Of a stretch of DNA of 64,000 nt, positions 34,631 to 63,310 are shown one piece after another (within the stretch, counting starts at the first letter, position 1; each line of letters begins with the position of its first letter). The position numbers and the translations under genes were made by a program. The stretch spans positions 51,550,749-51,614,748 of the forward strand of contig CM059193.1 in the NCBI GenBank assembly GCA_030323885.1, in the 5' to 3' direction. The notes under the pieces were generated by a model. The model had not been told where the DNA came from, did not search any database, and worked only from the letters and a program-made list of their open reading frames with translations. The stretch is from Branchipolynoe longqiensis (taxonomy: Eukaryota > Annelida > Polychaeta > Phyllodocida > Polynoidae).

Positions 34631-34681
34631 TTCACCCCCACCAACCACCGCACACACCCCCCCCCCCCCCCCCCCCCCCCC

Positions 34682-34766
<85 letters not shown>

Positions 34767-40161: not shown

Positions 40162-41091
40162 TCAGACGTCGTCGATCCCGTCGTCCTCCGAGCGGTGGTG
40201 CCATAGTGCCCGCTTGTTCCGGGAGAAGTCCCAGAGCTCGGCGACGATCTCGGAGGTCACGATGTCGTCGGTGTTGAGCGCAAGGAGCCGGAGAAGCAGG
40301 ACGCCGTCCGCACGCAGGTACTGCCCGACGAACCTCCGCACCCGCTGCCGGTCACTGCGCCGGTCACCGCGCAGGTCACCTCGTAGGTCACCGCGCAGGT
40401 CCAGCCGCTCGGTGGCTCGCAGCTGGCGCCTCACGAATGCGATGCGGTCTGCGCGGACCAGCGTCCGGTACAACCACACGACGAGGCCGGCCGTCGACGC
40501 GAAGGCGACGAAGACGAACCAGAACCAGACGAAGATGTAGATCTTCTCGTTGAACAGGTTTATGGGCAGCACGCACTGCACCGTGTAGCGGTGCACGTTT
40601 CCCAGCTGCCGCACCCGAAAGTCACACAGCGTCTCGCGCGGGAAGCGCTGCGTCGCTGCCCAGTCCTCGTTGCGCAGGAGGCTGCGCACGATGTGGATGC
40701 CGTAGAGGTGGTAGTCGGTGCCGAGGAAAACGTTCAGCAGGAAGAGTTGTGCCACGGCGTTCATCGCGTAGAGCAGCTTCACCAGCAGGTGCAACGTCGA
40801 CAGGAAGTTGCCGTACTTCCGGCCCCAGCAGCCGCACCGGAAGTGCCCGTGCGCGGGTCTGCAGCAGTAGGCGGGTGGGCGGAAGGTAACACAAAAGCGG
40901 TCGATCTGGTGGACGACATAGCGCATAGTCTTCTCATAGCTGTCGGCCTGGTGCAGGCCGCGCGTCGCCTGTACCAGCGTCGCTAGGTCGACACCGCAGC
41001 GCGCCGCCAGGAGGCGCCACGCCGCGTAGGGCAGGTAGAAGAAGAGCGCCTGCCCCACCAGGATCATCGGCACCCACTGGTAGTACACGAC
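40162..41091 (-). CDS. inx: innexin, exon 2 (TM2 to C-terminus)
   Basis: Codes residues 103-411 of an innexin, a four-pass plasma-membrane protein that forms gap junctions and hemichannels between invertebrate cells. It opens with VVYYQWVPMILVGQALFFYL, which contains the family signature YYQWV and the TM2 proline. TM3 follows at about 197-219 (LLVKLLYAMNAVAQLFLLNV, leading into the conserved FLGTDYHLYG). Extracellular loop 2 has two Cys at about 258 and 275, the usual pair. TM4 is about 286-310 (IFVWFWFVFVAF). The cytoplasmic tail carries a LRGD x3 repeat and ends in an acidic SEDDGIDDV. The stop is at 40162-40164. The acceptor is CTGTCCGCCAG before GTCGTG. No frame damage. The family is clear; the paralogue is not. 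Confidence 0.93.
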   Translation of the reverse strand, partial: VVYYQWVPMILVGQALFFYLPYAAWRLLAARCGVDLATLVQATRGLHQADSYEKTMRYVVHQIDRFCVTFRPPAYCCRPAHGHFRCGCWGRKYGNFLSTLHLLVKLLYAMNAVAQLFLLNVFLGTDYHLYGIHIVRSLLRNEDWAATQRFPRETLCDFRVRQLGNVHRYTVQCVLPINLFNEKIYIFVWFWFVFVAFASTAGLVVWLYRTLVRADRIAFVRRQLRATERLDLRGDLRGDLRGDRRSDRQRVRRFVGQYLRADGVLLLRLLALNTDDIVTSEIVAELWDFSRNKRALWHHRSEDDGIDDV

Positions 41092-55342: not shown

Positions 55343-55407
55343 TTTAAAGCCGACCATGTCCGATGAAAGCATCAAATGTTCAAAACCAAATCCCTAACCT
55401 AGATTTG
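55343..55407 (-). mobile_element. TTAAAGTTGCATAGTCC-ended MITE, copy g, left piece
   Basis: TTTAAAGCCGACCATGTCCG to ACCTAGATTTG. The other piece begins at 59076 with the same ACCTAGATTTG and continues the family sequence (ATCCTACATATCCAACTTGG). The two pieces are separated by the SINE with its expanded tail. Confidence 0.8.
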
Positions 55408-58400
55408 GTTGCTTGGTGGTTGGGGGCTTTGCGTTCTTGTAACATCTAACCTCATGTCAGCCGGATACAGATTTGATTGCTTGGTGGTTGGGGCTTTGCG
55501 TTCTTGTAACATCTAACCTCATGTCCGCACGGATACAGATTTGGTTGCTTGGTGGTTGGGGACTTTGCGTTCTTGTATCAATCTAACCTCATGTCAGAAC
55601 GACAGATTGGTTGCTGGTGGTTGGGGCTTTGCGTCTTGTAACATCTAACCTCATGTCGCCCCGGATACAGATTTGGTTGCTTGGTGGTTGGGGCTTTGCG
55701 TTCTTGTAACATCTAAACCTCATGTCAGCACGGCTACAGATTTGGTTGCTTGGTGGTTGGGGCTTTTGCGTTCTTGTAAACATCTAACCTCATGTCAGCA
55801 CGGATACAGATTTGTTTGCTTGGTGGTTGGAGCTTTGCGTTATTGTAAATCTAACTCATGTCAGCACGGATACAGAATTTGGTTGCTTGGTGGTTGGGGC
55901 TTTGCGTTCTTGTAACATCTAACATTCGTGTCAGCCGGATTACAGATTGGTTGCTTGGTGGTTGGGGCTTTGCGTTCTTGGAACATCTAACTCTTGTCAG
56001 CACGGATACAGATTTGGTTGCTTGGTGGTTGGTTGCTTTGCGTTCTTGTAACATCTAAACTCATTGTCAGCACGGATACCAGATTTGGTGCTTGGTGGTT
56101 GGGCTGTCGGTTCTTGTAACATCTAACCTCATGTCGCACGGATACAGATTTGGTTGCTTGGTGGGTGGTGCTTTTGCGTTCTTGTACCATCTAACCTCAT
56201 GTCAGCACGGATACAGATTTGGTTGCTTGGTGGTGGGCTTTTGCGTTCTTGTAACATCTAACCTATGTCAGCAGGATACTGATTTGGTTGCTTTGGTAGG
56301 TTGGGGCTTTGCGTTCTTGTAACATTCTACCTCATGTCAGCACGGGAGACAGTTTTGGTTGCTTGGTGTTGGTGCTTTGCGTTATTGTAACATCTAACCT
56401 CATGTCAGCACGGATACAGATTTGGTTGCTTGGTGGTTGGGTGGCTTTGCGTTCTGGTAATCATCTAACCTGTGTCAGCACGGATTACAGATTGGTTTTG
56501 CTTGGTGGTTGGGGCTTTGCATCTTGTAACATCGAACCGCATGTCAGCCGGAATACAGATTTGATTGCTTGGTGGTTGGTGCTTTGCGTTTTGTAACATC
56601 TAACCTATGTCAGCCCGGATACATATTTGGTTGCTGGTGGTTGGGGCTTTTGCATTCTTGTAACATCTAACCTCATGTCAGCATGGATACAGATTTGGTT
56701 GCTTGGTGGTTGGGGCTTTGCGTTCTTGTAACATCTAACCTCATGTCAGCCCGGATACAGATTTGGTTGCTTGGTGGTTGGGGCTTTGCGTTCTTGTAAC
56801 ATCTAACCTCATGTCAGCATGGATACAGATTTGGTTGCTTGGTGGTTGGTGCTTTGCGTTCTTGTAACATCTAACCTCATTTCAGCACGGATACAGATTT
56901 GGTTGCTTGGTGGTTGGGGCTTTGCGTTCTTGTAACATCTAACCTCATGTCAGCACGGATACAGATTTGGTTGCTTGGTGGTTGGTGCTTTGCGTTCTTG
57001 TAACATCTAACCTCATGTCAGCACGGATACAGATTTGGTTGCTTGGTGGTTGGGGCTTTGCGTTCTTGTAACATCTAACCTCATGTCAGCATGGTACAGA
57101 TTTGGTTGCTGGTGGTTGGTGCTTTGCGTTCTTGTAACATCTAACCTCATGTCAGCAGATACAGATTTGGTTGCTTGGTGGTTGGGGCTTTGCGTTCTTG
57201 TAACATCTAACCTCATGTCAGCACGGATACAGATTTGGTTGCTTGGTGGTTGGGGCTTTGCGTTCTTGTAACATCTAACCTCATGTCAGCACGGATACAG
57301 ATTTGGTTGCTTGGTGGTTGGTGCTTTGCGTTCTTGTAACATCTAACCTCATGTCAGCACGGATACAGATTTGGTTGCTTGGTGGTTGGGGCTTTGCGTT
57401 CTTGTAACATCTAACCTCATGTCAGCAGGATACAGATTTGTTGCTTGGTGGTTGGGTTTGCGTTCTTGTAACATCAACCTATGTCAGCGGATACAGATTT
57501 GGTTGCTTGTGTTGGGGCTTTGCGTTCTTGTAACATCTAACCTCATGTCAGCCGGATACAGATTTGATTGCTTGGTGGTTGGTGCTTTGCGTTCTTGTAA
57601 CATCTAACCTCATGTCAGCACGGATACAGATTTGGTTGCTTGGTGGTTGGTGCTTTGCGTTCTTGTAACATCTAACCTCATGTCAGCACGGATACAGATT
57701 TGGTTGCTTGGTGGTTGGTGCTTTGCGTTCTTGTAACATCTAACCTCATGTCAGCACGGATACAGATTTGGTTGCTTGGTGGTTGGGGCTTTGCGTTCTT
57801 GTAACATCTAACCTCATGTCAGCACGGATACAGATTTGGTTGCTTGGTGGTTGGGGCTTTGCGTTCTTGTAACATCTACTTGGGTGGTTTGTATCTCTCA
57901 TGTCAGCATGGATACAGATTTGGTTGCTTGGTGGTTGGGGCTTTGCGTTCTTGTAGCATCTAACCTCATGTCAGCACAGATACAGATTTGGTTGCTTGGT
58001 GGTTGGGGCTTTGCGTTCTTGTAAGATCTAACCTCATGTCAGCACGGATACAGATTTGATTGCTCGGTGGTTGGGGCTTTGCGTTCTTGTAGCATCTAAC
58101 CTCCTGGCAGCACGGATACAGATTTGGTTGCTTGGTGGTTGGGGCTTTGCGTTCTTGTAACATCTAACCTCATGTCAGCATGGATACAGATTTGGTTGCT
58201 TGGTGGTTGGGGCTTTGCGTTCTTGTAACATCTAACCTCATGTCAGCACGGATACAGATTTGGTTGCTTGGTGGTTGGGGCTTTGCGTTCTTGTAACATC
58301 TAACCTCATGTCAGCACGGATACAGATTTGGTTGCTTGGTGGTTGGGGCTTTGCGTTCTTGTAACATCTAACCTCATGTCAGCCCGGATACAGATTTGGT

Positions 58401-58756
58401 TGCTTGGTGGTTGGGGCTTTGCGTTCTTGTAACATCTAACCTCATGTCAGCACGGATACAGATTTGGTTGCTTGGTGGTTGGTGCTTTGCGTTCTTGTAA
58501 CATCTAACCTCATGTCAGCATGGATACAGATTTGGTTGCTTGGTGGTTGGTGCTTTGCGTTCTTGTAACATCTAACCTCATGTCAGCATGGATACAGATT
58601 TGGTTGCTTGGTGGTTGGTGCTTTGCGTTCTTGTAACATCTAACCTCATGTCAGCACGGATACAAATTTGGTTGCTTGGTGGTTGGGGCTTTGCGTTCTT
58701 GTAACATCTAACCTCATGTCAGCACGGATACAGATTTGATTGCTTGGTGGTTGGGG
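55400..58756. repeat. 68-bp satellite derived from a SINE 3' tail, about 50 copies
   Basis: The unit on the plus strand is AGATTTGGTTGCTTGGTGGT, TGGGGCTTTGCGTTCTTG, TAACATCTAACCTCATGTCA and GCACGGATAC. The period is exactly 68 in the regular part (for example 56691 to 56759). The last unit runs without a break into SINE copy 6, whose own tail is the same sequence. The seven bases AGATTTG are target-site sequence. The left third (55400-56640) has many single-base insertions and deletions; the right part is uniform. Confidence 0.95.
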
Positions 58757-59077
58757 CTTTGCGTCCTTGTAACATCTAAACTCATGTCAGGACGGATACC
58801 GACTTGTGAGAAAGCGCACTCATGACGATTTTATAGTGCTTCCCCATTGGGAGACCTACCTGCTGGCACCATGTCCTCATATCCCACTCAGTCACATTAT
58901 CCTGATGCTGAACTAACTAATCCTTGCCCTCTCCTGGTAATGCCAATCACCAGGCTAGCTAGGTAGGGACAGGTATTGATTTTGTAAGTCATTGGCTTGA
59001 CTCGGCTAGGATTCGAACCCCCGACATTCCGCACGGGAAGCCTGCGCTGTACCGATTCTGCCACCGCGTCCGGTCAC
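58757..59077 (-). mobile_element. SINE (copy 6), full-length parent of the 68-bp array
   Basis: Minus strand: head with A-box-like GGTGGCAGAATCGGT, B box GGTTCGAATCC, central part, then the 3' tail GATGTTACAAGGACGCAAAG that continues into the array. ACCTAGATTTG flanks it on the right (59076-59086) and the array on the left (55397-55407). Confidence 0.9.
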
Positions 59078-59262
59078 CTAGATTTGATCCTACATATCCA
59101 ACTTGGATTCTGGTACACTTATTTGTAAGTTTTCACTTCAAATATCTCCAAAGTAAACTATGTAAAGTAAAAGTTAATTCAAGGTAAAATAAGGTACAGC
59201 ATATCTACCAAGCTGAGGTATTTATTTAAAAGATATGACAGAAACGCTAAACCTATACTTTA
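59078..59262 (-). mobile_element. TTAAAGTTGCATAGTCC-ended MITE, copy g, right piece
   Basis: Continues copy g: CCTACATATCCAACTTGG, TTCACTTCAAATATCTCC and the degenerate far end. Confidence 0.75.
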
Positions 59263-60420
59263 ATTCACGATGAGACAAGTGTGGTATAATTTGCATTCAT
59301 TGGGAACTGGACAGTAATGGCCCTGTCACACTACGACGTAATGACATCAACGTAGGGAGAACGTGAAAAACGTCGAACTTCTCGGCGTAGAATGCAAATT
59401 TGGGCACAAGTTGAACGTGGATGCAGCGTAGTGGATGAGAGAGTAACGGCGGTAAAGCGTAGTGATGGCGTCATTCAACGAGAGAGGACAACGTAATTAT
59501 ACTCAGGGAACGTTATGTACATTATTCCATCGCCAGAACTACGTTGCTTTATGTTACCTTACGTTACTTATGTCATGAAACGGTGGCAAAATGGTAAACG
59601 TATGTTGGACATCCGTTAGGCGTCCATTATCCCGGCATTTTCACTACGTGGACTGCACGTTCACACTGGCTTTAATGTGGGTCAACGTAGTGCAATGTAG
59701 TGCAACGTAGTACAACGTAGTGCAACATAGTTGAACGTAGTGACCAACATTTTAATAACGTCTGTTTAACGTCATTGACGTTCGGCGAACGTGTACAAAA
59801 CATACGGCGAACGTAAACCCTTACGTTTGAGGTACGTCAAAAGTTTTGAACATGTCCAAAACCTCGACGTAACTCAACGTAACACGACGTAACGTGATGT
59901 AGCTCGACGTCAGTCTAACGTCATTCTGACATCATCATAACGTAACCCAACGTATGTCAACCTAATGATGAAAAATGACCACGTTAGGCTCACGTTCGCT
60001 CGTTACGTCATAGTGTGACAGGGGTATTAGACAGTTTACAAGGCAGGTAAGAATTTAATCAGGCGAATGGACCACTCGGCAATCTCAACCCTCGCGATCT
60101 AATGTATTTTTTTGTAGTTGAGGGGTGGGCGGCGGCAAAGTAAGGTTCGCTGTACTTCGCAGGTTCGTATCCAAGCGGGGACAGAGCTGCAGGCCGTGTT
60201 TTGACGTCAGTGCCAGGCGGACCGAACCCGCAAGGTGGCGAGAATCCGGTTTCGTGTGATGCAAAGTTAAGCCGGTAGGTGGCAGCAGCAGTGGGCAGAA
60301 GACCCTGGAGCAGGACGGTGAATTAACGCTAGGTGGCGAAACAAGTACCCGAATAGTTACTTGGCCCAAAAGCAGGCAAATGGCGTGGCAGTGTGGTTGA
60401 GAATGTTTGAAGGGTCTACA
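59262..60420 (-). mobile_element. YR (Ngaro-type) terminal remnant, interrupted by T2
   Basis: Reverse complement of A2-B2 of the element at 4811-10411, diverged. 59262-59328 matches the outer part of B2 (GTGTGGTATAATTTGCATT). 60024-60090 matches the inner part (CAATCTCAACCCTCG). 60100-60420 matches the spacer and A2 (GTAGTTGAGGGGTGGGCGGC, GTAGGTGGCAGCAGCAG). No coding part remains, like a solo terminus. Confidence 0.75.
59331..60023. mobile_element. CCCTGTCA-ended non-autonomous DNA transposon (T2)
   Basis: 693 bases. Inverted ends CCCTGTCACACTACGACGTA and CCCTGTCACACTATGACGTA. The interior is full of AACGTAGTG and ACGTTA words. A central imperfect palindrome at 59841-59864 has AAGTTTTG and CAAAAC arms around ACATGT. 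Confidence 0.85.
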
Positions 60421-60935
60421 CCCCACATCCCGCCACGAATTACCCGTGTTAGAGCTAACATGGACAATTGTTCACAATAGGTAAGCCCCCCGCTAACCTC
60501 CCCGGTGTTCGATATATCTATCACCCCACATCCCGCCGTGAATTACCCGTGTTAGAGCTAACATGGACAATTGTTCACAATAGGTAAGCCCCCCGCTAAC
60601 CTCCCCGGTGTTCGATATATCTATCACCCCACATCCCGCCACGAATTACCCGTGTTAGAGCTAACATGGACAATTGTTCACAATAGGTAAGCCCCCCGCT
60701 AACCTCCCCGGTGTTCGACATATCTACCACCCCATGTCCCGCCACAAATTACCCGTGTTAGCGCTAACATGGATAATTGTTCACAATAGGTAAGCCCCCC
60801 GCTAACCTCCCCGGTGTTCGACATATCTACCACCCCATGTCCCGCCAGGAATTACCCGTGTTAGCACTAACATGGACAATTGTTCACAATAGGTAAGCCC
60901 CCCGCTAACCTCCCTGGTGTTCGACATATCTAGGA
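60421..60935. repeat. 103-bp tandem repeat of the YR terminus, five copies
   Basis: Unit starts lie at 60421, 60524, 60627, 60730 and 60833, exactly 103 bases apart. Each contains, inverted, the start of repeat A: GAATTACCCGTGTTAGAGCT then AACATGGACAATTG. The other 43 bases (GTAAGCCCCCCGCTAACCTC and following) are not in A1 and may be flank or a diverged B end. Confidence 0.93.
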
Positions 60936-61100
60936 TAGGGCACGGACTGGTAACCTGACTGTCAGGATAATGTGACTCAGTGATATATCGGTTGGCCGCA
61001 TGGTATCCTATTGGAGTAGCACTATGCAGTCACCACCAATGCACGCTGTCACAAGTCAGTACTTGTCCTGATATAACCGCTGATATTATTAGGCCGTAAG
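60936..61100 (+). mobile_element. SINE (copy 7), 5'-truncated
   Basis: Central and 3' parts: AGGATAGGGCACGGACTGG, TCAGGATAATGTGACTCAGT, TAGCACTATGCAGTCACCA. Confidence 0.8.
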
Positions 61101-61611
61101 ACTCTATTCACTTCCTCCCTCACTTAATATATCATTATGGATCGATTGTCATGCCTTTTTATTGTTATTTTCTTTGGCTGGTGTCTAATTACCATATATA
61201 CCACTTATATTTTATGACTGAAGCTATGCCTGCCAAGATATACATGAGGCTTGTATTTCAGTTCATCAACAATAGCTTTATTCATTTAAGAAACAAGTAT
61301 ATAATATATATCATGCCAGCATTGTGTCGAAAGCACAATGTCTATGTTGATGTCTATTGGGTCTATTGCAGTACTTAGTGACTTACCTCGTTTGATAACA
61401 ATTATATCGGTTTGATAATTCTTTGGATAGTTTTCAATGGCTGGGTATATGTAACACTATATTCATTAGTGATGACACTAGCTATGGTCTGAAATGGAAA
61501 TTCATCCAATAAACATCATATCATATTATTATCGTCTCAGATAAGCGCTGAAAAGTTGCTATTCAAAGAAATATTGACCCGCACCAACAAAACCAACAAT
61601 ATGGGGCAGGC
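61101..61611. other. AT-rich spacer
   Basis: Nothing recognised; a 75-codon frame at 61151-61378 has no family features. Confidence 0.5.
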
Positions 61612-62944: not shown

Positions 62945-63310
62945 AAAAGAGACCGCACGTAGTGGTTTAATCGGTAGAGCGCAGGGTTCCCGTGCGGAAG
63001 GTTGGGAGTTCGAATCCCAGTCGAGTCAAACCAATGATGTACACAATTGAGACTTGTCACTACCTAGCCTGACACCCGGCATTATTATGATAGAGCAAGG
63101 GCTGGTTAGCTCAGTGTCAGGATAATGTGACTGAGTGAGACATTGGGTCATGGTGCCATCGGCCTGGTCTCCCAGTGGGGCATCACTATAAAGTCGCCAT
63201 GAGTGCACACTGTCGCAAGTCGATACCCGTCCTGATATGACATTAGACATTAGATGTTGCCGGATGTAAAACCCCAACACACAAACAAAACCCCAACACA
63301 CACAAAAATG
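62945..63310 (+). mobile_element. SINE (copy 10), full length
   Basis: The best head: A-box-like TAGTGGTTTAATCGGTAGAG and B box GAGTTCGAATCCC, then AGTCAAACCAATGA, the central part and the tail GATGTTGCCGGATGTAAAAC followed by CCCAACACACAAAC twice. It shows that the native tail is a CCAACA-rich short repeat. Confidence 0.9.

What the first reader, a model, noticed from the sequence alone, without database searches (positions are those of the whole stretch)
55343..59262. A satellite array caught at its birth from a SINE tail
SINE copy 6 (58757-59077, minus) has its 3' tail continued by about 50 tandem 68-bp units. The SINE plus array is flanked by ACCTAGATTTG on both sides, and outside these lie the two halves of one MITE. 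So a SINE inserted into a MITE, made an 11-base target-site duplication, and its 3' end then grew into a 3.4 kb satellite in place. The matches are direct; the order of events is inference.
Basis: partly seen in the sequence, partly recalled or inferred. Interest (0 to 1): 0.92.

Follow-up and report, generated by a model that had tools for sequence, protein, structure and literature searches.

The report
SINE tail grown into tandem array
In an invertebrate genome, a small mobile element (a SINE) sitting inside another mobile element carries 50 tandem 68-base copies of its own tail, most of which end in seven bases identical to the landing site, so the array likely grew in place after the jump, with the landing site likely supplying part of the repeat.

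Summary
A tRNA-headed SINE (58739-59075, minus) runs into 50 units of 68 bp (55401-58799). The whole lies between two copies of ACCTAGATTTG inside a MITE, and six other MITE copies in the window cross the site uninterrupted. On the left, 7 of the 11 duplicated bases also belong to the last array unit.

New here: the unit is 61 bp of SINE 3' end plus CAAATCT, the first seven bases of the target-site duplication. The SINE body has CAAGTCG at the matching place, and none of the 6 other SINE copies reaching it has CAAATCT. The array starts at the SINE breakpoint and stops at the target breakpoint. This fits a Haber-Louis type duplication between two 7-base near-repeats, one in the SINE and one in the target, after insertion, then expansion.

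"At its birth" is too strong: the array consensus differs from the SINE-resident unit at 4 of 61 sites, and much of the distal part is rich in small indels, probably poor polishing. SINE-derived satellites and minisatellites are known; the target-supplied repeat end is the variant. Whether the array occurs elsewhere could not be tested: the genome search did not complete.

The parts
55343..55396 (+). left part of the host MITE, up to the target-site duplication
   Evidence: aligns with six other copies across the joined site; inverted end
55397..55407 (+). target-site duplication, distal copy (ACCTAGATTTG); its last 7 bases are also the end of the last array unit
55401..58799 (-). array of 50 units of 68 bp (SINE sense GTATCC...CAAATCT), the first being the SINE's own 3' end
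58732..58799 (-). SINE-resident first unit; 4 differences from the array consensus, none in the CAAATCT joint
58800..58806 (-). CAAGTCG in the SINE, 5 of 7 like the target's CAAATCT: inner breakpoint word
58739..59075 (-). tRNA-derived SINE, 5' end at 59075, 3' end running into the array
58998..59070 (-). tRNA-like head of the SINE
   Evidence: Rfam tRNA model 1-71 of 71, 19.9 bits, E 0.15, below the gathering score; GGTTCGAATCC (box B form, recalled) read in the sequence
59076..59086 (+). target-site duplication, SINE 5' side copy (ACCTAGATTTG), free of the array
59087..59263 (+). right part of the host MITE, with a middle deletion relative to its relatives

Best explanation
A tRNA-derived SINE inserted into a MITE with an 11-base target-site duplication, and later the stretch from a CAAGTCG in the SINE to the CAAATCT of that duplication was likely duplicated in place and then likely expanded to 50 units. 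Shown: the SINE, the duplicated 11-mer, the split MITE with uninterrupted relatives, the 68-bp unit made of 61 bp of SINE 3' end plus seven bases equal to the target, and array limits at exactly those two breakpoints. Inferred: that the first duplication was replication slippage or unequal exchange between the two 7-base near-repeats (the Haber-Louis route), that it followed the insertion, and that further slippage or unequal exchange with homogenisation made 50 units.
For: Every part of the joint is predicted: SINE 3' end, then CAAATCT from the target, then GTATCC of the SINE. CAAATCT occurs 42 times exactly in the array stretch, 35 of them directly followed by GTATCC. None of the 6 other SINE copies that reach this place has CAAATCT there: three CAAGTCG, one each CAGGTCG, CAAGTCA, CCAGTCA. 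Two substitutions to exactly the target bases in a pure SINE unit: likelihood ratio about 1800 against (simple independence model). Chance 7-base match at this phase: 15 of 186815 random sites in the masked window. The two breakpoint words match at 5 of 7; 5 of 331 SINE positions reach that and none exceeds it. Whole number of units between the two breakpoints. At unit positions 9 and 35 the SINE-resident unit agrees with most other SINE copies and the array consensus does not, so the array stems from the SINE.
Against: No second locus, allele or species was seen. CAAATCT could also be a 7-base priming match of an RNA that already carried the unit; at any phase of the unit such a match occurs by chance in 926 of 186815 sites. 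The word match is only 5 of 7. The SINE's normal 3' end rests on one other copy with a clear target-site duplication (61.9k copy); four further copies tested gave none. Neighbouring units do not share recurrent variants more than shuffled ones at lags 1-6, so there is no direct trace of stepwise local expansion (4 variants only, low power).
Confidence: 0.76

Rival explanations
1. The SINE RNA already carried one or more 68-bp units before insertion; its end ...CAAATCT primed reverse transcription on a target with the same seven bases, and the array may have grown further afterwards.
For: Explains the 7-base overlap of array and target as a priming match; no TTTT run (recalled Pol III terminator) occurs in the array in SINE sense, so a transcript could in principle cross it.
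Against: Needs an unexplained origin of CAAATCT in the unit and an independent 7-base match at the insertion (any phase: 926 of 186815 random sites). None of the other SINE copies in the window shows the unit joint.
Confidence: 0.12
2. The first duplication was made during the insertion itself, by a jump of the reverse transcriptase or faulty repair of the fresh target site, and only the expansion came later.
For: Also gives a unit holding target bases and integer units; SINE tails elsewhere in the window hold short repeats (63268-63307).
Against: A jump on the RNA alone does not add target bases between two SINE segments; a DNA repair step would still be needed. Not separable by sequence from duplication soon after insertion.
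Confidence: 0.07
3. The SINE inserted at the edge of an array that was already there.
For: None found.
Against: The unit is the 3' end that other SINE copies carry at unrelated sites, and the 11-mer lies outside SINE and array together.
Confidence: 0.02
4. The array, or much of its length, is an assembly artefact.
For: 65 small indels fall in units 19-50 and none in units 1-18, apart from one insertion of about 16 bases that I left out of the count; other long arrays in the window show 0% indels in TRF.
Against: Both ends continue into matching MITE parts and duplicated 11-mers, and units 1-18 are clean. Copy number may still be wrong.
Confidence: 0.03

Closest known systems
SINE-derived satellites (sSats) of squamate reptiles (PMC10702118; abstract, passages and sections 5 and 19 read)
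   Same: Head-to-tail units from part of a SINE, with a longer terminal unit that reaches the SINE terminus; unit sizes from 67 nt; long arrays of hundreds of units.
   Different: There the link is by similarity; the words TSD and target site do not occur in its main text. Some units there hold 14, about 30 or 44 nt 'of unknown origin'; here the extra 7 nt equal the target site.
TE-derived human minisatellites flanked by short direct repeats (PMC3389668, passages) and the Haber-Louis model as described in PMC6947457 (passages); Haber and Louis 1998 and Jurka and Gentles 2006 not read
   Same: Short direct repeats flank the amplified motif. In PMC3389668, 300 of 7,276 arrays have flanking repeats of 5-20 bp, mostly 7 bp.
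   Different: In the Alu cases as described the short repeats are in the element; here one is in the target-site duplication, and they match at 5 of 7.
Older SINE-related satellites: Hy/Pol III of salamanders, Satellite 1 of Xenopus, mouse B1 arrays (seen only as table rows in PMC9659126 and PMC6947457)
   Same: Tandem repeats from SINEs.
   Different: Listed there as from the tRNA-related region or an internal B1 word; here the 3' end plus target bases.
Proposals that target-site duplications seed repeats (PMC9659126, passages; PMC12628747, passages)
   Same: They give target-site duplications a part in making tandem repeats.
   Different: There: joined duplications after excision, or repeated insertion into the same site. 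Here: one duplication serves as the outer end of a unit that is mostly SINE.

Membership tests
tRNA-derived SINE | tRNA-like head | tested here: inconclusive
   Full-length tRNA model match on the SINE strand, but 19.9 bits, E 0.15, below the gathering score of 29
tRNA-derived SINE | dispersed non-coding copies with a shared body | tested here: met
   Other copies at several places and on both strands, 71-78% pairwise with this copy
tRNA-derived SINE | target-site duplication at the insertion | tested here: met
   11 of 11 here, with the overlap caveat; 9 of 9 at the 61.9k copy; none of 8 or more bases found for the four other copies tested
tRNA-derived SINE | 3' end shared with a partner LINE | tested here: inconclusive
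   No LINE in the window matches the SINE 3' end; genome not searchable
MITE (host element) | short non-coding dispersed element with terminal inverted repeats | tested here: met
   Six other copies; inverted ends clear in the 33k and 50k copies, worn in the host
SINE-derived satellite | head-to-tail units derived from part of a SINE, next to a SINE terminus | tested here: met
SINE-derived satellite | many loci in the genome, heterochromatin or subtelomere link | not testable with these tools
   The genome search did not complete (11 calls); one array in the window
Haber-Louis type minisatellite | short direct repeats bounding the amplified motif | tested here: inconclusive
   CAAGTCG and CAAATCT at the breakpoints match at 5 of 7, reached by 5 of 331 SINE positions; not an exact repeat

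The most novel reading that the evidence does not exclude
SINE insertion makes satellite seeds because the target-site duplication supplies the outer short repeat: any target whose first bases resemble a stretch inside the SINE 3' end sets up a ready-made slippage pair. The stretches 'of unknown origin' in other SINE satellites would then be captured target DNA, and each array would carry the address of its birthplace.
Probability: 0.3. Interest if true: 0.72.

Novelty: new variant of a known kind. Interest (0 to 1): 0.52.

Why it matters
How satellites start is often argued from similarity alone. Here one locus holds the target, the SINE, both breakpoints and the product side by side, and the repeat unit carries bases equal to the landing site, which, if they come from it, puts the amplification after the insertion. 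The same test (compare the non-SINE part of a unit with that locus's target-site duplication) can be run on TE-derived arrays in any genome.

Tried and rejected
Considered and dropped: a pre-existing array hit by a SINE (the unit is the SINE's own 3' end); chance similarity of the flanks (six relatives cross the site); a real age gradient along the array (the excess in units 19-48 is mostly small indels, 63 against 34 private substitutions, and looks technical; not proven); stepwise local expansion shown by neighbour similarity (no signal at lags 1-6, low power); a G-quadruplex as driver (best 25-base score 1.16, reached by 5% of window positions: weak); a partner LINE in the window (none matches). 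A scan of viral contigs for the unit found nothing (says little about an animal genome). Literature: nine answered searches; in their listings and in the passages I read I saw no report of target-site bases inside a SINE-derived unit. Most listed papers were not opened and only open-licence papers are held, so this is no proof of absence.

Full report
What is there. On the minus strand a SINE begins at 59075 with GACCGG and a tRNA-like head (58998-59070; tRNA model 1-71 of 71, E 0.15, below Rfam's own score limit). It is 71-78% identical to six other copies in the window. From 58799 to 55401 follow 50 units of 68 bp, the first of which is the SINE's own 3' end. The 11-mer ACCTAGATTTG stands at 59076-59086 and 55397-55407.

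The host. With the flanks joined, six other copies of the surrounding element align across the site (exact join). Copies at 33k and 50k show matching inverted ends, TTAAAGTTGCATAGTCCGAT and close forms; the host's right end is worn.

The unit. In SINE sense it is GTATCC...CAACCACCAAGCAAC followed by CAAATCT. The first 61 bp are SINE 3' end: with the locus masked, the unit hits three other SINE copies at 48.2, 32.8 and 31.9 bits, against a maximum of 26.5 for 100 shuffles. Where the unit has CAAATCT before GTATCC, this SINE copy has CAAGTCG. Of the 6 other copies that reach this place, three read CAAGTCG and one each CAGGTCG, CAAGTCA and CCAGTCA. CAAATCT is the start of the target-site duplication in SINE sense. 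It stands beyond the SINE's 5' end, outside the array, and in 2 of 6 uninterrupted MITE relatives, with near forms in the other 4. In the array stretch it occurs 42 times exactly, 35 of them directly before GTATCC; CAAGTCG occurs once, in the SINE body.

Why this points to growth in place. A duplication from just after CAAGTCG in the SINE to just after CAAATCT in the target gives this joint. It also predicts that the array begins at the SINE breakpoint, ends at the target breakpoint (CAAATCT, then AGGT and the MITE) and holds a whole number of units. All three are seen. A unit made of SINE alone would need two substitutions that both hit the target base; with 4 of 61 differences elsewhere the likelihood ratio is about 1800 against that, under a simple independence model. 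A chance 7-base match at this phase occurs in 15 of 186815 random sites of the masked window, and at any phase of the unit in 926 of 186815. The two breakpoint words match at 5 of 7, reached at 5 of 331 SINE positions and exceeded at none. This is the layout of the Haber-Louis model as described in PMC6947457 (passages), with one of the two short repeats in the target-site duplication. The mechanism of the first step and of the expansion is inference.

Direction and age. At unit positions 9 and 35 the SINE-resident unit agrees with most other SINE copies while the array consensus has changed, so the array stems from the SINE. The array consensus differs from the resident unit at 4 of 61 sites outside the joint; the SINE copy differs from the majority of other copies at 36 of 251 sites. 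Four variants recur in 4 to 14 units each without neighbour clustering at lags 1-6, which suggests exchange between distant units but has low power. This is an established array, not one at birth.

Against, and limits. Small indels: 0 in units 1-18, 15 in units 19-31, 48 in units 32-48, 2 in units 49-50; private substitutions 11, 1, 33 and 1. One insertion of about 16 bases in the clean part was left out of the indel count. I take the small indels for poor polishing, so the copy number is approximate. The SINE's normal 3' end rests on one other copy with a clear duplication (CCCCATATT, the 61.9k copy); four others tested gave none. The window lies in a protostome-like animal: it encodes an innexin (Pfam E 6e-73) whose best match is unnamed (57%) and whose best named matches are annelid, Capitella and Lamellibrachia, both 47%. 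The species is not known to me. Nothing beyond the window could be searched, because the genome tool did not complete. The main rival left is an RNA that already carried the unit and primed on a 7-base match.

Place among known things. SINE-derived satellites are known from squamates (PMC10702118) and, by review tables, from salamanders, Xenopus and mouse. In human, 300 of 7,276 TE-derived tandem repeats are flanked by 5-20 bp direct repeats, mostly of 7 bp (PMC3389668, passages). Reviews already give target-site duplications other parts in making repeats. What is added here is a unit whose end equals target DNA, at a site whose duplication, split host element and uninterrupted relatives are all readable. 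That some squamate units hold stretches 'of unknown origin' makes the idea testable elsewhere.

Noticed in passing
63268-63307: The tail of another SINE copy (62951 onward, plus) repeats its last 18 bases about 2.2 times: short tail repeats at a second SINE.
   Followed up: partly
1376-2260: A SINE copy (about 1560-1880, plus) has a GTAT array on its 5' side and an ACATACGTACGT/CATA array directly at its 3' end.
   Followed up: partly
60415-61125: A 103-bp x 5 array abuts a SINE fragment that lacks its 5' part and starts right at the array's end (about 60933).
   Followed up: partly
55401-57560: Single-base indels are concentrated in units 19-50 of the array, absent in units 1-18: probably poor polishing of a long-read assembly.
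   Followed up: partly
57832-57915: One unit of the otherwise clean part holds an insertion of about 16 bases of unknown source.
   Followed up: no
34657-34764: A run of 108 C lies inside or beside another copy of the same MITE.
   Followed up: no
40162-41088: Innexin reading frame, minus strand, inside a region full of retroelement frames; nearest named relatives are annelid.
   Followed up: partly
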